A stretch of DNA of 19,950 nucleotides from Stephanodiscus triporus (Eukaryota > Bacillariophyta > Thalassiosirophyceae > Thalassiosirales > Thalassiosiraceae), in contig JALLAZ010000235.1 in assembly GCA_036939755.1 (NCBI GenBank), positions 1-19,950 on the forward strand, written 5' to 3'. Under the pieces are notes generated by a model, which was given only the letters and a program-made list of their open reading frames with translations, did not search any database and was not told where the DNA came from. The position numbers and the translations under genes are program-made. Positions 6,407-19,794 of this stretch are shown here, in pieces (the first letter of the stretch is position 1; the number at the start of each line of letters is the position of its first letter).

Positions 6407-7551
6407 CTAATTGGCAAGTGTTTCTCCCACCAGAACCTCTACATGCATGCTTTGTTCGGCAGCCTTTCTCAAAGGTTGCACAACATCCACTGCCTTGGAT
6501 GTGAACAACGCAAACGCGGACCCCCCCGCTCTAAATGCGGACAGTTCCTGCCCCTTGGCAATTGCCTTGCCAACCATCGCATCATCGTACGTTATAGTGT
6601 TGACCCCCACGCCGCCGATGATGACCAAGGCCACCCGCAAGGGCTCCTCCTCCTCGTCATGGGACATTTCCTCCTCTAGCACGATGACCAATCTCTTGTT
6701 TTCGTTGAGGAGGTTGAATTTGCCTCCAAAGAACTTAACCGACGCGGACGGCGAGCCAATACCCTCCATTTTGCAGTGTACGCATTTCCCCTGCGGAGCG
6801 TGGAACCAATACGGGGGAACGTGAGGAGAGGATTCGCACCATGTGCGAATACGCCGCAACATCATCACCGTCACTGCAATTATCAAAGCAAAACGCCCCG
6901 ACTACTTACCGATATCGGCGCGTGAACCCTGTGATAATCCTTCGGGGATAAATATCCGAGGATGACGCGATTTTTCCTGTACGCGTCGAGGTCCTTATCC
7001 GGAAGTCCGATGTCCGACGCGTCGTAGTCGCATCCCTTGATAAGCATCGACCTCATCCGATCGTCGTCGTCGTACGATAGCACCTTGCAGCACGAGGGGG
7101 AGACCAACCGTCCCGTTCCGATCTCCGGGAAGTGATCCGGCGCGTACGTTCGGGAGAAGAAATCGTTCAGCGACGCGTACTCGTCAATCTTCCGCTCCCA
7201 TATCCACGGCCGTCGCTGCACGCCCAATCGATCGCAGAAGTCGAGTATTTTCGACGTCGCCTCGTGAGCGCTCGCGAACGGCACGTCCCACGAATTCTGT
7301 ATCGTCGTGAATAGGCGTATGATCCCGTTGATTATAGGATTGGACGTCCCGAAGAGGGCCATGTCGAAGAGCATCGTCGCGAATACGCCCTCGAATAGGG
7401 TCATGCGCGGCTCGTCGCGCCTCGACGTGCCGTCCCGGAGGACGTACACCTCGAGGGGGGAGGTATTCTCGCGTATACGATCGGATATTCGACGGGGGAG
7501 GACGGCGAGGAGGAGACGCGCGAGGACGTCCCCGATGGCGAAGAAATTCAT
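6407..7551 (-). CDS. Phosphatidylserine decarboxylase family protein with altered active-site Asp motif
   Basis: Two exons, 7551-6910 and 6790-6407, with a 119-bp GT-AG intron; 341 aa. I chose the acceptor at 6791 because it keeps the frame and restores the family motif YHRVHAPIS|G. PSDs convert phosphatidylserine to phosphatidylethanolamine with a pyruvoyl group made by self-cleavage at Gly-Ser. Visible motifs are SLNDFFSR (127-133), LGYLSPKDYHRVHAPISG (198-215, with the conserved His), NLLNENKR (241-247), GGVGVNTI (273-280) and the cleavage site AGGSAFALF with S305. The usual SPADG motif reads SPSCCKV (151-157), so the Asp of the Asp-His-Ser triad is replaced by Cys154. A hydrophobic N-terminus (MNFFAIGDVLARLLLAVLP) may be a membrane anchor. 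No ATG exists farther upstream in this frame, although the frame stays open to 7857, so an additional 5' exon is possible. Confidence 0.85.
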
Positions 7552-8137: not shown

Positions 8138-10783
8138 ATGGGTCCCGTCGTAACGCTCGTCCTGGCCTTCATGGCCCTGTCCCTATTCGTCAAATACGCG
8201 TGGGAGAAGGTCGAGCTCTTCCTGCGCTCCAACTACAAGTACCTATTCCTCGACTCCCTCGCGTCGTACGTGCACTACGGCGAGGACGTCGGCGTGGAGG
8301 CGTCACTCGCGCTCGATTATCCCACGACCGACGTACTCGGGCGTCGTCTCGAGGGGCAGAGGTACCTCGCGTCCAAGCTCGGCGGCACCGTAGACGTTGG
8401 CGGGGGCGATGGCGCCCGCCGCGGTGCCGCGCTCGCGTCGTCCCTCGTGGACTGTCGATTCGCGCTCGCGAAGGTTTGCATGCCGTTGCTACGCGAGCTC
8501 GAATTCTCCCCCGACGTCTCGGGTCGGAACTTCGTCGCGGGCGTGCGTTCGTCGGGGATGCTCCACGTCGTGACGGAGGACGGCACCGCGAGGCCGTACG
8601 TTGGGAACGACGCCGTACACACGATGGGCGTTTCGTCTTTCTACGCTCCCATCCAGGAGGAGGTCAATCGACGCACGACCGGCGTCGGGGGCATGCCACG
8701 ATTCTGTCCCATCGCGATGAACGCGGAACTCGAGAGGAACGTCGAGCTCGTCAAGAGACTGACGGGGATGGACAAGGTGCGATACTCGCTAAGCGGATCC
8801 GAGGCGATCGACGGCGCGATCAAGGACGTCAGGTCGTCGTGCGACGACAAGCCCCTGGTCGTCCGATTCAAGTCGGCGTATCACGGACACGTCTCCGGCG
8901 TGAGCTTCGTCGACTGTCCCGGCCACGTCTTCCTACCGGAGTGCTCGAGGTCGAGCATCGACTTCATCGAGAGGTATCACTATCGCATATGCGCCGTCGT
9001 CGTGAATCCCATGCAGCACTTCACGGGCGTCAACAGGCCGAGTCCGCCGGGGGAGAAGGTCACGCACGGGAGCAGGATCCGCACATCGGTCCCACGCGAG
9101 GAGTACGCGCGCTGGCTGCACGATCTCCAGGAGAAGTGCAACTATTGCACCAAGTACCTGACGAGGGTGAGTTAATATATAATATATCGTATGCCAGATC
9201 TCGAGCGGGGGGTTCTCCCCTCGCGCATCCACGCCCCATTCGTACTTAACACCTTAATATCCCCGGGGATCGTCCTCGTCGGCATTGCCGCATCCGACCC
9301 CCCTTGCAATTCGTCCCGGTCGTTTTTCGATCCCCTCCTCGCCTCTCCCCAGGTCGCGCTGGTCGTGGACGACATCTACTTCGCCTTCCGCACGCCGGAG
9401 CTCCTGAGCGCCAATTACTTCGCCCATCCCGACACGAAGGCGCCCCTGAGGCCGGACGTGATCGTGCTCGGGAAGGCCTTGGCGGCGGGATACCCCCTAA
9501 GCGCGATCGCGGGACGGGAGGGTTTCCTCAACGCGTACGACAGGAAGTTCCTCCTGCGCCTGAACAAGACCGTGGGTACCTTCGCCGCGTGGCACGGCGG
9601 TATCGTGGCGTCGAACGTCTTCCTCGAGGCGCTCGAGGGGGGCGGACGTTCCGACGGCACGTCCCTCCTCGCGACACCCGCGAAAGATCAGCTCGCGTGT
9701 CTCGTGCGCAAGTGCGACGACTTCGCCGTGTCCGTCAACGGAGAGCTCGCCGGCGCGGGCCTCCCCGTGCGCCTGCGCAACTTCAGCAACACCTTCTCCG
9801 TCGACTTCCTCAACGAGTCCCTCTACAACAGTCGCTACCCCCAGTACCTCCTCGCGGAGGGCATGTTCCTTGGAAATTACTCGACCGGGAAGTTCAATTT
9901 GAACGCCGACGTCACCAAGGACGATCTTAGGAGGCTTGGCGCGATGTTCGTATCGGCGGCATCGCGGATGCAGCGAGACGGGTACTTCGAGCCGATGCGC
10001 CCGGCCGCCAGGCGAAGGTTCTTCCTATCCCTGATCGCGCGCTTCGCGGGGAACTACGCCAGGCTGTACTACGACCGGATCATGTCGGACAAGCACATCG
10101 ACATCGAGGTCTCGCACAACCATCCTGTCAACAAGTTCGGGCACTTCTGGTCCTCCGTCGGCATGATCCTGTTCGCGTACCCCCTCATCTTCTGGCACGG
10201 AGAGCCGATGAAGGGATGCGCTTGGTTCTTCTTGACGCACGTCATTAGGCAGAGCGGTCATTTCTTCTACGAACACCAGGACCGCGACATCGAGAAGCTG
10301 AAATTCGGGCACAAGGATGCGAGTAAGAAGGAGGCGGTCGCCTTCCTTTTGTGTGCTGCGATCGTGTACAACTACCGTGAAGATCTTTTTGTCTTTGCCA
10401 CCAAGTACGTTGATCCTGCATTCTTTCAGCTTTCACTCGATCAATACGTATCGGTGATAGCGCTGTTTACGGTAGTTCCCCACTTTGTTGAGATAGTCTA
10501 TCAGTATGTGAGTAGTCGCTTGTGTCTTTGTTTTCTTCCCCCGTTTGACTTGCGTACGACGGCATTTCATGCTCAAATTCATTCTTATTAAATATGTCCG
10601 ATGTTGTAGGGACTCCTGCGGGGCCTGTCCTGGGCTGTGAAGATTGTCACCGATCCTTTCACGGATCTGCTAGACTTTTACACTCACGTAATCATTCATC
10701 CACGGTGGTTTTTGGATTTCAAGGATCAGCGGGCCACGTACCGTTTGGATATCAAGACGAAAAAGGTTGTGAAGGTAGAATGA
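8138..10783 (+). CDS. Class III PLP aminotransferase fused to an Mpo1/DUF962-like membrane domain
   Basis: Three exons, 8138-9166, 9353-10507 and 10610-10783; introns 9167-9352 (186 bp) and 10508-10609 (102 bp). All junctions are phase 0 and the product is 785 aa. Residues 5-25 form an N-terminal membrane anchor. Residues about 60-560 are a fold-type I aminotransferase resembling glutamate-1-semialdehyde aminomutase: YSLSGSEAIDGAI for phosphate binding, FKSAYHGHVSG, VALVVDDIYFAFR (PLP-ring Asp region) and LGKALAAGYPLSAIAG with candidate Schiff-base K384. From about 590 a hydrophobic region carries HNHPVNKFGH (H598, H600, H607) and RQSGHFFYEHQD (H646), with further membrane segments. This resembles the HxxPxN..H and GH..E signatures of Mpo1/YGL010w, a yeast Fe(II) dioxygenase of phytosphingosine alpha-oxidation. 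The substrate is unknown; a long-chain amine or amino-lipid would suit the fusion. Composition changes sharply near 10300. Confidence 0.85.
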
Positions 10784-11016: not shown

Positions 11017-12777
11017 TTAGCTCTTTTGCTTCTGTGCCATCTCCATACGATGGAGACTGCCAGATGAAGGGAGCTTTTGAAACGATTGCACCTTGATCAA
11101 CATGTCTTCCGCTGCAGACTTGAAGAAGAGACGAACAGATCCACCACATAGTGATCGTATTTGAGAGAAGATAAAGAACGAGATCGTTGTGGCAATGGTG
11201 ACCCCACACCAAATCGGGAAATAAAGCCAACCAAAGAGGGTGAAGGTGTGTTGACGATCTTGAAATGCGTCTTGGTATTCTCCTAGGAGGGAATGACAAG
11301 CGTCAGACCATGATTTGAGCTTGTCCAGGTCAGGCAGTCCAGCCGGGTCGTTAATCGAGTGACGAGCCAGTTGTCTTGAAATTGCGACCGTCATGTCTTC
11401 CTGACAAAGAGGCTTCCAGAAAGCATCTCTTGGAATGGCCTCACCATACGCCTCGGCAAAAACTGGCACATTAGGCAGGGCTACACGAACTTGAGAGGCA
11501 AGTGCCTCGTTGACAGTTTGCCCAAAAGTCTCAGTTAGCGATGGGCACACGAATAGGTCTGCGACTGCATACACAGAATGAAGTGCCTCGCCGCTTTGGT
11601 AGCCCAGAAACTTCACTGGAACATCAAGGACTCGTGCAAGACGTTCGAGCTCCGGGCGGAAAGGACCATCGCCGACGAGCCACAAGGCGCAGTCCGGCAA
11701 TTTTGTTAGTACCTTGATGAGATCTTTTGATCAGAGCAAATCCGGTATGACGTCAGGGCAAACTATGAGCAGTACAGACGCAATAAGCACAGTGAAATCT
11801 CACCGTCAACACCCTTCTCAGGCGACAGTCTTCCTACACACACGAGCAAGTATTTCTTGTTCTCTCTTGTGAGGTACTTCTCTTTCGATGCAGCCCAAAT
11901 TCTTCCCCATTTTGAGTCCTTCGCAGCCGGCGAGAACTCGGTCCTGTCGACCCCGGTGAAGCAAACTCCGGCTCGTTTTCCTACAGATCGTTTCCAGAGA
12001 CGAACGAGATGGGGCTCGCTCTTTCTCGTTGGAGTAAGAACCCTGTCACTTATCATTGGCAACATTCCGAACAGTAGAAAGAAGAAGGCATATGAAACGA
12101 ACCGCAAAGGACCAATGGAAAAGTGCTTAATGTAGTCGACAATATTGCAGTGCCAGCTGACCACGAGGGCTGGCTTTGACTGGCGCTGTAATGGCGAAAA
12201 ACGCAACGTAGACGAAATGCGACGTGGAGAATCAAGTTAGAGGCACCCGCGATTCGAACCGTGAAGAGTTCACAATGCAGCCCTTACCTTTACGCAACGC
12301 AAGATCTTGTATGATGCAAGAATCCACATCCCCGACAGATTCGCAGGCATAACTATGTGGACTACATCGTAGGGAGTAGTAAGGAGCTCGATGAGTTGAT
12401 AAGGATGGACAATCATCATGCGCGCAGTGAAGTTCCATGGGTTCACGTGGGAGAGCACTTTCGTTGCGCCAGAGTCTGGATGCAGGACATCTGAAAGAGA
12501 AAGTCGCGAACAAGAACATTAACTAGAGTAGTTAACACAGGCATGAGTAATTATTTCCTCAATTGCGCTCACCAACGTCGCAGCCAAGATTTCTCAAACC
12601 ATCTGCATACATTCCTATACGACGAGCTATTCCATTGACTTGCGGCGGAACGCTCTCTGAGCAGATGAGCACCCGTAAGCCATTGGACCTTCCTGATGAC
12701 TTGGCCATAGGATTAGTACCTTCGACAGCAGGAGGCGAAGCTGCTATGTATCGATCGACGGAGATAACTTGGCACAT
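11017..12777 (-). CDS. GT4-type glycosyltransferase with C-terminal membrane anchor
   Basis: Four exons: 12777-12573, 12490-12288, 12185-11804 and 11723-11017. GT-AG introns of 82, 102 and 80 bp all keep the frame; 498 aa. A second ATG at 12708 would give 475 aa. The N-terminal Rossmann domain begins RVLICSESVPPQVNGIARRI, as in GT4 enzymes of the MgtA/SQD2 kind. The nucleotide-sugar domain shows LVCVGRLSPEKGVDDLI, WLVGDGPFRPELERLA, VKFLGYQSGEALHSVYAVAD and CPSLTETFGQTVNEALAS with the EX7E pair (E-T-F-G-Q-T-V-N-E). A hydrophobic stretch at about 423-452 is followed by a basic tail, suggesting a tail-anchored or monotopic membrane enzyme. Donor and acceptor are unknown; glycolipid (sulfolipid-like) or mannosyl transfer are the leading options. 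It converges on the aminotransferase fusion, with 233 bp between stops. Confidence 0.85.
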
Positions 12778-14034: not shown

Positions 14035-15840
14035 TCAACTCGTCTCAAACATGTCTTTCATAAGCTCAACTAAACGCGCATAATCTCTCCTGAACTCCTC
14101 CTCATCGTTATTCATAAGATGGGCCCATCCAGTATCGGTTCGAATGTCGATTGTCTTTTGGATGGGATTTCCAACCTCCATGAATTGCGGGTACACGTGC
14201 ACATCCATCACACTCGGCAAATCATGTATCTCCTCAAGGATGTCAAACCTAATACGAGAGATGCTGCCTTCTACATGGCTAACAAAATGAATGATCGCCG
14301 CGCATGCATGGGTTGATGGTAGGGCCGGAATGTTATCCCAATGAAGTGCTTGGCTGTGTCTGATGATGTTGTCGGCATCAAGATGCGCTGACAAATACAA
14401 ATCTAAAGCATTGTACCCGATGCAGGCATTGGTCAAGGGACTGAAGTCGGTATTGTGCTGTCGGCAATTCACCTCAACAAGACGAACTCGTGTCTTCCCT
14501 GTTACCGGGGATGTTTCCGCGATGACCTCAACGTGAGACAGCCCCCAGCGGACTCCTAGTGCTTCTAGTGCTTTAAAGACATAGTCGCATACCTCTTTCT
14601 CCAGTCCCTCTTGATCGGCAGATATCAGCTCAGTTGCAAAATAAACAAAGGGCGCACCATTCACCGCTCGCTTATCATACCGCCACAGAGCAGCCACCTT
14701 CCGCTCTCCGTCGCGGCACACAACATCAACCGCGTATTCAATTCCCGTAGCGAATTCTTGAACCAAAACTTTCTCATGTTTCGCCGCAGTTGGTGAGCCG
14801 AAGACAGGGCTGTGAAGGATTTTCGTAAACGCTTCCCGAAGAGTAGAAAAGTTAGAACAAAGGTGAACATCGTCCGACGCCACGCCTCTTAGAGGCTTGA
14901 CAACCACAAGTGGAGATGAGTTCTGTCTATTGTCGTCTTCGCTCAAACCCAACTCACGAGCAAATGCCTCGGCCTGCTCCAGTGTTCGGCAAGATTTTTG
15001 CTTCACAACATCTAACCCTCCTTCTTCCGAAAGCACTTGATTCATCAAAAATTTGTCCCTTCGAGCAGGATTCATCCCGTCGTGACAATGTGGGTACAAT
15101 CCCAATGCAAGGCCCAGCCGTTCCGCATCCTCCAAACCTGAGTCGGACTCGCAATAAATACCGCAGATTTCCATGGATGATGGAAGTAATGAAAACCAAT
15201 CCTCAACATCCGACCCCCTTTCCAAGTCAGGTAATCGACTTGATAAATGATCTGTTTGTTCTTGCACTTGATATAGGTATCGAGTGATAAAGTCAGAAAG
15301 TACATGAATGACTGCAGCTCCATATATGTGTCGTGCAGCATGAGAAAGGTATTGTCCGTGATACGGAGAGAACCCGTCCATGATAATTATTGCCTTCATG
15401 GGTTGATCGCTGGGGTTTGCTTCATGGTTAATTTCATTGCCAACATCACCCAGAGTGCTATACGTGGAATCGTGTCCAAGCGCCATGTCCGTGGCCGGAA
15501 CTGGCCATGAAATAGAGGGTGTTGCCGGCCCGACTTTTGACCATTCTTTTCGAAGCTCCTGCATCGCGTGATCTCCTCTGTTGTCCCTATCATGCTCAGT
15601 TGCACCCCCTCTTATGTACAATGCGGCTGTCGAATGCGTAGATGTGCGCGTTTTTGCCGTCGGCAATATTGTTCGACACGCTTTTCCCTTTCCGGCTCCC
15701 ACTCGAACTCCATGAAACAGCCGCACCGGGCGGGTCCGGCCATCTGCAAATGTGAACATGCTGCCGTAGGTGGTCGTGGCTGAAGTTAGCATCATCAGGG
15801 CAATCAGTGCCCACCTTAAGACGCTATGAACGCTCGCCAT
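14035..15840 (-). CDS. ATP-grasp ligase with N-terminal signal peptide
   Basis: A single exon of 601 aa. The start at 15840 is the first ATG of the frame. Residues 1-27 (MASVHSVLRWALIALMMLTS...) form a signal peptide; the following Arg/Ser/Thr-rich segment up to about 78 could be a transit peptide, although no clear ASAFAP site is visible. The pre-ATP-grasp domain is about 147-300 (IIIMDGFSPYHGQYLS, then LGLALGLYPHCHDGMNPARRDK). ATP-grasp landmarks are VVVKPLRGVASDDVHL with K315, KVLVQEFATGIEYAVDVV (357-374), WGLSHVEVIAE (432-442) and RLVEVNCRQHNTDF with Mg-binding E456 and N458. The closest named families are the carnosine synthase / BacD-like L-amino-acid ligases, which join a carboxylate and an amine via an acyl phosphate. 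The substrates cannot be read from sequence. Confidence 0.85.
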   Translation of the reverse strand: MASVHSVLRWALIALMMLTSATTTYGSMFTFADGRTRPVRLFHGVRVGAGKGKACRTILPTAKTRTSTHSTAALYIRGGATEHDRDNRGDHAMQELRKEWSKVGPATPSISWPVPATDMALGHDSTYSTLGDVGNEINHEANPSDQPMKAIIIMDGFSPYHGQYLSHAARHIYGAAVIHVLSDFITRYLYQVQEQTDHLSSRLPDLERGSDVEDWFSLLPSSMEICGIYCESDSGLEDAERLGLALGLYPHCHDGMNPARRDKFLMNQVLSEEGGLDVVKQKSCRTLEQAEAFARELGLSEDDNRQNSSPLVVVKPLRGVASDDVHLCSNFSTLREAFTKILHSPVFGSPTAAKHEKVLVQEFATGIEYAVDVVCRDGERKVAALWRYDKRAVNGAPFVYFATELISADQEGLEKEVCDYVFKALEALGVRWGLSHVEVIAETSPVTGKTRVRLVEVNCRQHNTDFSPLTNACIGYNALDLYLSAHLDADNIIRHSQALHWDNIPALPSTHACAAIIHFVSHVEGSISRIRFDILEEIHDLPSVMDVHVYPQFMEVGNPIQKTIDIRTDTGWAHLMNNDEEEFRRDYARLVELMKDMFETS

Positions 15841-16247
15841 GAATGAACCTTCCACCGATTTCCTACAAATCAATGACGCGGCTGCGCTCCCCGCGCTCTC
15901 TTTTGATAATTGATGTGAAATCTTCTACCCTCCACAAGATCCGAACCTGCTGGTCACTGACACCTAACCTGACAGCTGAATTACCGTTGAGATGATTATT
16001 ATTTTTTGCTCTATCTCTAGTCCGAATCAAATAATGCGTCTTCGCCGCTGGAAGAGATTTTTATCTTACATGGGAATAGTAAAACAAATCTCATTGACTT
16101 AGCTTAAGATATTCTATTGATTTGGAGTCTGTAGTATGTGGGGGGAGCGTGAGTTAAAACAGCGGCATTATGTGTGTAGCTGCGGCTGCCGGCTCATACT
16201 ACGTGAGCGCAGAGGACTAGATTCATTGAATGAATGCAAAAACGGAC
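15841..16247. other. Divergent intergenic region, ATP-grasp / small plastid protein
   Basis: These 407 bp lie between two divergent starts. I see no coding signal, repeat or RNA gene. It is probably promoter and 5' UTR for both genes. An alternative in-frame ATG for the plus-strand gene lies at 16230. Confidence 0.35.
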
Positions 16248-18378: not shown

Positions 18379-19358
18379 CTATCGTGCACGATGTCTACGG
18401 ATGATTGAGTTCGAGTTTGCATCCTCGTCGTCGTCGTCGTCGTCGTCGTCGGAGGAGGAGGAGGAGGAGGAGGAGGAGGAGGAGGAGACGAGGGTGAGGT
18501 CGCTAACGTACGTCGCGTCGTCGTCCCTGATCGCCCTCCTCATCGTCCTGTAGGTCTCGCCCATCCCGTCCATGACGACGATCATGCCGTCGTCGAACGG
18601 GGACTGAGACGCGACGCTGTACGCGTGCGCCAGGTGATGACTAAGTTCGTACTTATGCCCGACCGACGACAGCAGGTTGTACTCGTCGGCATATCCCCCG
18701 CCACCGCCGTCGCCGTCCCCGCCGTAATTGATCCTCAGCCCGACCTCCCATTCCGCCCGCCGTAGCACGTCCCCCCCCTCGACGTACGTCAGTATCCGAT
18801 GATGGTGATTGTTCATAACGACCGCGACGACGTCCTCGACGTCCGCGTCCAATTCCTCCAGGCAGGCCTCGACGATGGACGCGGCGTCCCCCCCGTCATT
18901 CTTCTTCCGCGTGATGCGTTCCTTCGACGTGCCGAACAGCACCTCGCCGGTGCGCGCGTCCGCGGCGCATATCGACGCGTCGTGCGAGTACTTGTTGATT
19001 CCGAGGACGATCTCGCGACGAGAACGACCGCGTACGCCGCCGCCGGTCGTCGTCGACGTTGCGCCGTCCCCGGCGGAGGAGGGGGAGGGGGGCGGGGGGG
19101 AGTACATGTCGACGTCGAACGGTGTCGAGCGGAGTCGAACGATCGACGACGACGACCCCCCCCCGCCATCGGTCGCGGTCGTCGTCGTGTACGACCATGA
19201 CGACGACGACGGCCGCGACGAGAACGAGAACGACAACGACAACGGAGGACGGCCGAGGCCGAACGATCCCGCCTCGGGGGGGGACGTCGTAACGAACGCC
19301 GCGGCCGCAGCCGTCGCGACGACGACGAGACGTCGTCCGACAGCGAGGGGGAGGAGAG

Positions 19359-19406
<48 letters not shown>

Positions 19407-19464
19407 TCGTCATCGTCAACGACGACGACGATGACGATGACGATGACGATGACGACGAATCCAT
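18379..19464 (-). CDS. Carbamoyltransferase (NodU/CmcH family), N-terminal part only, with poly-Ser/poly-Asp tracts
   Basis: An open frame of 361 aa from the ATG at 19464; another ATG at 19413 gives an Arg-rich then hydrophobic leader (LVVVATAAAAAFVTTSP) suggestive of a plastid presequence. Homology starts at REIVLGINKYSHDASICAAD and runs through EERITRKKN-like KERITRKKN and YELSHHLAHAYSVASQSPF to IVVMDGMGE. These are the first half of the Kae1-like domain, including the HxxxH iron site. The family normally continues with GxxYSxxTxxLGF, GKxMGLAxYG, a second Asp ligand and a C-terminal domain. Here the frame instead enters 12 Ser and 8 Asp residues encoded by microsatellites, then stops at IIRRHRAR. 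It is therefore truncated, misassembled, or continues in an exon I could not find. Catalytic function is unlikely as drawn. Confidence 0.6.
18427..18486. repeat. Trinucleotide microsatellite (GTC)n-(GGA)n within coding frame
   Basis: On the plus strand a run of GTC repeats passes directly into a run of GGA repeats. On the coding (minus) strand this is read as poly-Ser then poly-Asp near the C-terminus of the carbamoyltransferase frame. It coincides with the abrupt drop in GC content on the left. Confidence 0.9.
19358..19458. repeat. Trinucleotide microsatellites (GAC)n and (GAT/GAC)n within coding frame
   Basis: A long ACG/GAC run (about 19358-19403) encodes the poly-Arg tract, and a GAT/GAC run (about 19421-19458) encodes poly-Ser on the minus strand. 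Length variation here would change the N-terminus of the carbamoyltransferase product. Confidence 0.9.
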
Positions 19465-19481
19465 ATTTAATGTAAATATGG
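19461..19481. repeat. Perfect 9-bp inverted repeat at the carbamoyltransferase start codon
   Basis: CCATATTTA (19461-19469) and TAAATATGG (19473-19481) are exact reverse complements with a 3-nt spacer. The start ATG of the minus-strand gene lies inside the left arm. The arms contain a CATATTTA/TAAATATG core like a CArG or TATA-type element, and could form a hairpin in the transcript. Confidence 0.6.
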
Positions 19482-19794
19482 GTCGGTTGCGCGGGGAGGG
19501 GGGGGGGGAGTTTGCCAACGACGACGACGAGGGTTAGAGAGAGAGAGATGTGATGGGTGATGGGGAGATGAATGAAAAAAAGTGAGTGACTGTTTTCCCT
19601 CTTTTTCGTGTCTTTTTCTCTGTGTGGTGATTGGTTGGTTGGTTGTGTGTGAGTGTTTGTGATTTTTGTATCGGTCCTTCCCGCCAATCTTTCCTTTTAG
19701 GGTATGTTTTATTTTTAAGTAGGTAGAGAGTGTGTAGAGTAGGTAGAGTAGATTCGTATCTACGATACTTAGGAGTACTTTTTTAGAGTAGTAT

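What the first reader, a model, noticed from the sequence alone, without database searches (positions are those of the whole stretch)
8138..10783. Aminotransferase fused to an Mpo1/DUF962-like membrane domain
The spliced frame joins a class III PLP enzyme (candidate Lys at residue 384) to a hydrophobic His-motif domain (HNHPVNKFGH and SGHFFYEHQD). Mpo1 is a dioxygenase of phytosphingosine alpha-oxidation. A PLP aminotransferase in the same chain suggests sequential chemistry on a long-chain amine or 2-hydroxy acyl substrate at a membrane. I know of no characterised enzyme with this architecture.
Basis: partly seen in the sequence, partly recalled or inferred. Interest (0 to 1): 0.75.

Follow-up and report, generated by a model that had tools for sequence, protein, structure and literature searches.

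The report
Two-enzyme lipid fusion in diatoms
A diatom gene joins a vitamin-B6 aminotransferase to a membrane oxygenase-like domain; bacteria carry the same two parts as separate genes inside a recurrent cluster of lipid-making genes, so the pair probably builds an unknown membrane-lipid head group.

Summary
The spliced frame (8138-9166, 9353-10507, 10610-10783) gives a 785-aa protein. Its order, class III PLP aminotransferase (AT) then Mpo1-like membrane domain, is conserved in diatoms and Amoebophrya: 83 of 89 search hits bear the C-terminal motif. K384 and the His motifs are nearly invariant. The C-terminal domain is a remote PF06127 relative; two family members pass the Pfam cut-off, the window copy does not.

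New here: bacteria encode both halves as separate genes. In 299 sampled Pseudomonadota genomes each half occurs in 21, and 20 have both. Around 20 of the 21 Mpo1-like genes lie a phosphatidylserine decarboxylase (PSD) in 20, a GT4 glycosyltransferase in 17 (one weak), a PmtA-like N-methyltransferase in 11. In the window the fusion is likewise flanked by a PSD and a GT4, in the same order, but the window PSD is not of the bacterial cluster clade.

Boldest reading: synthesis of the betaine lipid DGCC, whose pathway is called unknown. No biochemistry was done.

The parts
8138..9166 (+). Fusion gene, exon 1: N-terminal membrane anchor (residues 1 to about 25) and first part of the class III aminotransferase (residues 1-343; GSEA at 220, YHGH at 248)
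   Evidence: open frame, GT donor at 9167; Aminotran_3 E 2.3e-8; helix 2-29 in the model of the relative P0007; motif positions
9353..10507 (+). Fusion gene, exon 2: rest of the aminotransferase and most of the Mpo1-like membrane domain (residues 344-728)
   Evidence: AG acceptor at 9351-9352; Aminotran_3 E 1.5e-4 and Mpo1-like E 0.021, both below cut-off
9473..9475 (+). K384, candidate PLP lysine (GKALAAG)
   Evidence: Lys in 32 of 33 relatives; exception P0057 (Asn)
10046..10783 (+). Mpo1-like membrane domain (about residues 575-785, interrupted by the intron 10508-10609)
   Evidence: PF06127 in 31 of 33 relatives at E<=1; similar to the bacterial stand-alone protein, hhalign E 7.3e-15
10115..10144 (+). 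H598-x4-N603-x3-H607 motif
   Evidence: 31, 33 and 32 of 33 rows; same spacing in bacterial partners and in six classical-type Mpo1 sequences
10256..10273 (+). G645-H646-x3-E650 motif (RQSGHFFYE)
   Evidence: H 31 of 33, E 32 of 33; RQxGHFFFE in 13 of 13 bacterial partners aligned
10610..10783 (+). Fusion gene, exon 3 (residues 729-785), includes the conserved TDPFTD motif
6407..7551 (-). Divergent neighbour: phosphatidylserine decarboxylase (two exons 6910-7551 and 6407-6790, 341 aa, my model)
   Evidence: PF02666 E 3e-10; spliced model; best NCBIfam models are PSDs, below their cut-offs; outside the bacterial cluster PSD clade
11017..12708 (-). Downstream neighbour: GT4 glycosyltransferase (exons 12573-12708, 12288-12490, 11804-12185, 11017-11723, 475 aa, my model)
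   Evidence: spliced model; PF13692 E 1e-13 in the last exon; best NCBIfam models are lipid glucosyltransferases, far below their cut-offs; best hit is the cluster GT4 in 7 of the 8 searched genomes whose cluster has a called GT4

Best explanation
The gene encodes a membrane-bound bifunctional enzyme. Its N-terminal half is a class III PLP aminotransferase. Its C-terminal half is a remote relative of the Fe(II) dioxygenase family Mpo1. The halves are the fused form of two bacterial proteins that nearly always occur together, beside a GT4 glycosyltransferase and a PS-decarboxylase of a separate clade and, in alphaproteobacterial loci, a PmtA-like N-methyltransferase. Shown: the fusion, its conservation, the split bacterial pair, the linkage. 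Inferred: the unit remodels the head group of a membrane lipid. GT4 places a sugar on a lipid; the Mpo1-like domain oxidises or cleaves it to a keto/aldehyde intermediate; the aminotransferase aminates that to a serine-like or amine head; the PSD paralogue decarboxylates an O-linked amino acid; N-methylation follows where the gene exists. The order of steps and the product are inferred.
For: Collinear fusion in 33 aligned relatives at 39-78% identity to P0007, three of them with degraded or broken C-termini. Bacterial pair homologous to both halves: hhalign E 1.3e-49 over 504 columns including the N-terminal anchor and E 7.3e-15. The fusion member P0062 finds the cluster aminotransferase as best hit in 12 of 12 bacterial genomes (E 8e-43 to 5e-30); other class III enzymes reach 1.7e-7 at best, in 4 of the 12. 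Co-occurrence: 20 of the 22 genomes that have either part, of 299 sampled (Fisher p 6e-29 ignoring kinship). Neighbourhoods: PSD 20 of 20, aminotransferase 19, GT4 17 (L128 by a weak 36-bit match), Pmt 11. 8 of 8 genomes tested have exactly two PSD matches, one of them in the cluster, and 13 cluster PSDs form one clade, 95/99. Window order PSD, AT-Mpo1, GT4 mirrors the bacterial GT4, Mpo1-like, AT, PSD, with PSD and AT divergent in both (the loci L138-L143 have another order). The closest solved relative of the aminotransferase is the MycA AMT domain by sequence and by Foldseek; that MycA acts on a beta-keto acyl chain is recalled.
Against: The window PSD lies outside the bacterial cluster clade and scores better against canonical PSDs (25-49 bits against at most 19), so that neighbour is a family-level match only; its branch is very long, and its highest pairwise identity (25%) is to a cluster row. 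Pmt is near in only 11 of 20. Six of 20 loci have a different gene order. Metal binding, substrate and product are untested. Comparison with six classical-type Mpo1 sequences is not significant. Some relatives lack one active site (P0057; P0041, P0059), so the halves are not always both needed.
Confidence: 0.6

Rival explanations
1. One reading: the enzyme does alpha-oxidation of 2-hydroxy acyl or sphingoid chains (Mpo1-type) coupled to transamination of a long-chain amine.
For: PF06127 is named after the 2-hydroxy-palmitic acid dioxygenase; distant PF06127 matches. An aminopentol aminotransferase is among the PDB sequence relatives.
Against: None of the recurrent neighbours that I identified is a sphingolipid or fatty-acid oxidation gene; head-group genes recur. 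Not significant against six classical-type Mpo1 sequences.
Confidence: 0.12
2. The aminotransferase aminates a keto acyl chain or aldehyde (MycA/PigE-like) to an amino lipid tail, and the Mpo1-like domain modifies that chain.
For: Best sequence and fold match is the MycA AMT domain; the PigE model is a weak hit.
Against: No acyl carrier protein or ketosynthase was among the recurrent neighbours that I identified (not searched for specifically). Many class III enzymes of other function score close behind.
Confidence: 0.12
3. The Mpo1-like domain is a non-catalytic membrane scaffold and only the aminotransferase is an enzyme.
For: Remote similarity only; P0041 and P0059 keep the aminotransferase lysine but lose His residues.
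Against: H-N-H and GH..E are kept in 31-33 of 33 fusions and in 13 of 13 aligned bacterial partners; P0057 keeps them after losing the PLP lysine.
Confidence: 0.12
4. Prediction artefact: two neighbouring genes wrongly joined.
For: No transcript was seen here.
Against: The same fused order in proteins from several diatoms, Amoebophrya and many metagenomes; the halves share exon 2.
Confidence: 0.01

Closest known systems
Mpo1 / DUF962 family (PF06127, yeast YGL010w type)
   Same: H-x4-N-x3-H spacing and a GH..E motif; small hydrophobic helical domain
   Different: Score under the Pfam cut-off for the window copy; no PA..D motif; extra C-terminal part with K-I-x-T-D-P; fused to or paired with an aminotransferase
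Class III PLP aminotransferases (GSA aminomutase HemL; MycA AMT domain; NeoB)
   Same: PLP lysine, DD, GSEA and YHGH motifs; fold
   Different: Membrane anchor; far below the cut-off of each of the 25 NCBIfam models listed per protein; closest to the bacterial cluster enzymes
plcP-agt lipid-remodelling loci of bacteria (PMC4796936, passages seen)
   Same: GT4 near lipid genes; a metallophosphoesterase that I call PlcP-like from recall (16 of 80 loci) and an LplT transporter (19 of 80) sometimes adjoin
   Different: Core is aminotransferase, Mpo1-like protein and PSD; PlcP-like in 1 and LplT in 2 of 20 sampled neighbourhoods
BtaA/BtaB betaine-lipid (DGTS) synthesis
   Same: possible product class (betaine or amine head group)
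   Different: different enzyme families; BtaA was not searched for

Membership tests
Mpo1-like (PF06127) | score above the Pfam gathering cut-off | tested here: not met
   window copy 15.4 bits against 24; two other family members pass (29.2 and 24.9 bits)
Mpo1-like (PF06127) | H-x4-N-x3-H motif | tested here: met
Mpo1-like (PF06127) | GH..E motif followed by PA..D | tested here: inconclusive
   GH..E met; PA..D not seen in the fusion (compare)
Mpo1-like (PF06127) | significant profile similarity to classical-type members | tested here: not met
   hhalign E 0.33 (fusion domain) and 0.025 (bacterial partner) against six rows, a shallow set, one row recalled from memory
Mpo1-like (PF06127) | Fe(II)-dependent dioxygenase activity on 2-hydroxy fatty acid | not testable with these tools
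   biochemistry needed
Class III aminotransferase (PF00202) | Pfam match above cut-off | tested here: met
   exon 1 alone 33.6 bits against 30.5; 33 of 33 relatives match at E<=1
Class III aminotransferase (PF00202) | PLP lysine and cofactor aspartate | tested here: met
   K384 32 of 33; both residues of the DD motif (D349, D350) 33 of 33
GSA aminomutase (hemL) | NCBIfam hemL cut-off 527 bits | tested here: not met
   42.5 bits for the relative P0007; the window protein itself was not scanned with NCBIfam
Fused form of the bacterial aminotransferase / Mpo1-like pair | halves closest to the pair | tested here: met
   AT: best hit in 12 of 12 genomes (query P0062); hhalign for both halves; for the Mpo1-like half no competing family was compared beyond
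Fused form of the bacterial aminotransferase / Mpo1-like pair | neighbouring PSD orthologous to the cluster PSD | tested here: not met
DGCC synthesis pathway | makes DGCC or an intermediate of it | not testable with these tools
   needs knock-out and lipidomics

The most novel reading that the evidence does not exclude
The fusion and its GT4 and PSD neighbours are part of the unknown biosynthetic pathway of the betaine lipid DGCC, the phosphorus-free stand-in for phosphatidylcholine in Thalassiosira and dinoflagellates. GT4 would put a sugar on diacylglycerol. The Mpo1-like domain would open the sugar ring, leaving the DAG-O-CH(COOH)-O- acetal and a keto-acid arm. The aminotransferase would turn the arm into an O-linked serine, a PSD would decarboxylate it to an ethanolamine ether as it does with PS, and N-methylation would give the choline arm. 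Bacterial clusters would make the same or a sister lipid. This would reuse the PS-PE-PC logic on a sugar-derived, phosphate-free head group.
Probability: 0.2. Interest if true: 0.95.

Novelty: new variant of a known kind. Interest (0 to 1): 0.77.

Why it matters
A recurrent bacterial gene cluster and its fused diatom counterpart point to a lipid head-group pathway for which I found no description (searches, held library only). Passages seen here state that DGCC synthesis is unknown (PMC10685587; PMC5835749) and that DGCC replaces phosphatidylcholine in phosphorus-starved T. pseudonana. A four- or five-gene candidate set, present in culturable bacteria and a model diatom, makes that open question directly testable. 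Even if the product is another lipid, the fusion supplies a functional link that neither half alone suggests.

Tried and rejected
Giant-virus or prokaryotic origin of the whole fusion: no relative in viral contigs or genome contigs with the fusion alignment (each scan used two short peptide patterns). Fold match of the C-terminal domain in the PDB: none at E<=0.001. Window PSD as orthologue of the cluster PSD: not supported; the tree program warned of the window row's long branch, I did not run its one-clade test, and the three short second-copy PSDs (L094-L096) were left out of the tree. Expression under P stress: paper searches gave nothing usable (listings only). A published account of the fusion or cluster: none seen in the listings, which cover only the held open-licence library. 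DGCC in bacteria: one search, one coral paper listed, not read. Co-distribution with DGCC: not testable here. This counts mildly against the DGCC reading unless a divergent or unfused form exists. Paralogue counts in the window's own genome: PF06127 search listed nothing; PSD, GT4 and fusion searches did not complete. His clustering in space: models give no coordinates.

Errors of mine: alignment A3 wrongly held one aminotransferase row and was replaced by A5. The first ORF calling picked antisense frames and was redone.

Full report
Observation. The stated junctions have canonical ends and join into one 785-codon frame. Exon 1 matches Aminotran_3 above cut-off; exon 2 holds a sub-threshold Aminotran_3 match and a weak Mpo1-like match. 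A search of 5.8 billion proteins gave 89 hits among the 7993 candidates scored. Rows with an organism name are diatoms (Conticribra weissflogii, Thalassiosira profunda, T. pseudonana, Stephanocyclus meneghinianus, Cylindrotheca fusiformis, Grammatophora oceanica) and Amoebophrya sp. A25. By a simple motif script 83 of the 89 bear one of two C-terminal motifs. I aligned 33 of the 89. K384 is kept in 32, the DD motif (D349, D350) in 33, H598 in 31, N603 in 33, H607 in 32, H646 in 31 and E650 in 32 of 33. The exceptions are informative: P0057 loses the PLP lysine but keeps the His motifs, while P0041 and P0059 keep the lysine and lose His residues.

What the C-terminal domain is. PF06127 matches 31 of 33 relatives at E<=1 (best 8.3e-5) and 9 of 9 isolated domains (best 5.5e-6). 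P0130 (29.2 bits; 287 aa, no aminotransferase part seen) and P0129 (24.9; piece of a fusion) pass the cut-off of 24. Classical-type Mpo1 sequences share H-x4-N-x3-H and GH..E, but profile comparison with six of them, one recalled from memory, is not significant. I call it Mpo1-like at superfamily level. No PDB fold matches the isolated domain at E<=0.001.

The split pair in bacteria. A profile search with the domain found, besides pieces of fusions, stand-alone proteins of about 200 aa (P0178, P0179; more distant P0173). A scan of genome contigs with P0179 gave 302 relatives, of which 80 loci were kept, many titled as Burkholderiales members or Bradyrhizobium. An aminotransferase matching the fusion's own profile was found in 73 of 80 loci, the Mpo1-like frame in 72 of 80 by my ORF calling, and both in 67; GT4 in 64, PSD in 38, LplT-like 19, PlcP-like 16, Pmt 15. 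Many loci are cut by contig ends. The 15 Pmt loci all bear alphaproteobacterial titles (class recalled). Both halves are clear homologues of the fusion: hhalign probability 100, E 1.3e-49, for the aminotransferase including its N-terminal membrane anchor, and probability 98.4, E 7.3e-15, for the domain. With the fusion protein P0062 as query, the best hit in 12 of 12 bacterial genomes is the cluster aminotransferase; other class III enzymes appear in only 4 genomes, at E 1.7e-7 or weaker (cluster identity read from coordinates).

Sampled test. In 299 genomes drawn by the tool from the phylum of G006 (Roseomonas, so Pseudomonadota), the Mpo1-like protein occurs in 21 and the aminotransferase at E<=1e-100 in 21 (at most 4 candidates per genome were scored); 20 genomes have both. 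The two exceptions (G275, G140) have small assemblies (1.6 and 1.7 Mb). Fisher p is 6e-29, or 9e-28 without G006, which supplied seed rows; kinship is not corrected for. Of the 21 genomes with the Mpo1-like protein I cut out 20 neighbourhoods, leaving out G006. PSD is in 20 of 20, aminotransferase in 19 (the miss, L141 of G275, is a short contig), GT4 in 17, of which L128 only by a weak 36-bit match, PmtA-like methyltransferase in 11, LplT in 2, PlcP-like in 1. In six of the 20 (L138-L143) the gene order differs and the GT4 match lies in a protein of about 900 aa, or a cut piece of one; the three that I tested have no Pfam match outside the GT4 part. The name PmtA-like rests on the best NCBIfam model, below its cut-off; LplT passes its cut-off. 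PlcP-like is a recalled label for a metallophosphoesterase.

A separate decarboxylase. 8 of 8 genomes tested have exactly two PSD matches, one in the cluster. Thirteen cluster PSDs form one clade (95/99) apart from five canonical ones. Such a paralogue suggests a substrate other than ordinary phosphatidylserine. That is inference.

The window. Upstream and divergent lies a PSD (6407-7551), downstream a GT4 (11017-12708), both as spliced models of mine. The order PSD, AT-Mpo1, GT4 equals the commonest bacterial order GT4, Mpo1-like, AT, PSD read backwards (in many loci with Pmt or LplT between or beside), with PSD and aminotransferase divergent in both. I searched 12 genomes with the window GT4; 8 have a GT4 called in the cluster, and in 7 of these it is the best hit, some matches covering only part of the protein; the exception is G005. 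Against this, the window PSD falls outside the cluster PSD clade and scores better with canonical PSDs. So the bacterial neighbourhood is matched at family level, not shown to be inherited as a block. I did not quantify the chance of such neighbours.

Mechanism. The aminotransferase's closest solved relative by sequence and by fold is the MycA AMT domain. AlphaFold gives pLDDT 77.6 for P0007, with an N-terminal helix, an aminotransferase core and a helical C-terminal domain. The recurrent partners make a consistent chain: glycosyl transfer to a lipid, oxidation, transamination, decarboxylation of an O-linked amino acid, N-methylation. I therefore favour head-group building over acyl alpha-oxidation. 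Every catalytic step is inferred.

DGCC. All papers here were seen as passages only. PMC10685587 states that nothing is known about DGCC synthesis; PMC5835749 calls the pathway conspicuously unknown beyond incorporation of labelled methionine, which fits N-methylation, and reports DGCC in P-starved T. pseudonana only. [quoted passage not shown] The acetal structure I use is recalled. The fusion is present in T. pseudonana and in Amoebophrya (a dinoflagellate relative, recalled). Against: PMC10685587 says DGCC has been observed solely in marine organisms, while many of the bacteria with the cluster belong to taxa that I recall as freshwater or soil dwellers; haptophytes make DGCC (Pavlova, PMC8379373) yet no hit was named as one; the methyltransferase of the diatom is not identified. 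I give it 0.2.

Noticed in passing
P0057, P0041, P0059 (one search hits): Relatives with complementary losses: P0057 lost the PLP lysine and YHGH but keeps the His motifs; P0041 and P0059 (66% alike) keep the lysine but lost C-terminal His residues. They may be paralogues that split the two activities.
   Followed up: partly
L138:3732-6572, L139:2335-5022, L143:2707-5382: In these bacterial clusters the GT4 lies at the end of a protein of about 900 aa whose first 500 residues have no Pfam match at E<=0.001; by eye it looks like a PHP-type metal-dependent domain (recalled).
   Followed up: partly
bacterial genomes G001-G008: Each of 8 genomes has two PS decarboxylases, one in the cluster and one elsewhere; in 3 of 8 the second copy is a short form (L094-L096).
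   Followed up: partly
window 14035-15873 (-): ATP-grasp domain protein (PF13535 E 4.3e-10), beyond the GT4.
   Followed up: no
window 18379-19518 (-): Carbamoyltransferase N-terminal domain match (E 8.4e-8) in a frame with long low-complexity Ser/Arg/Asp runs.
   Followed up: no
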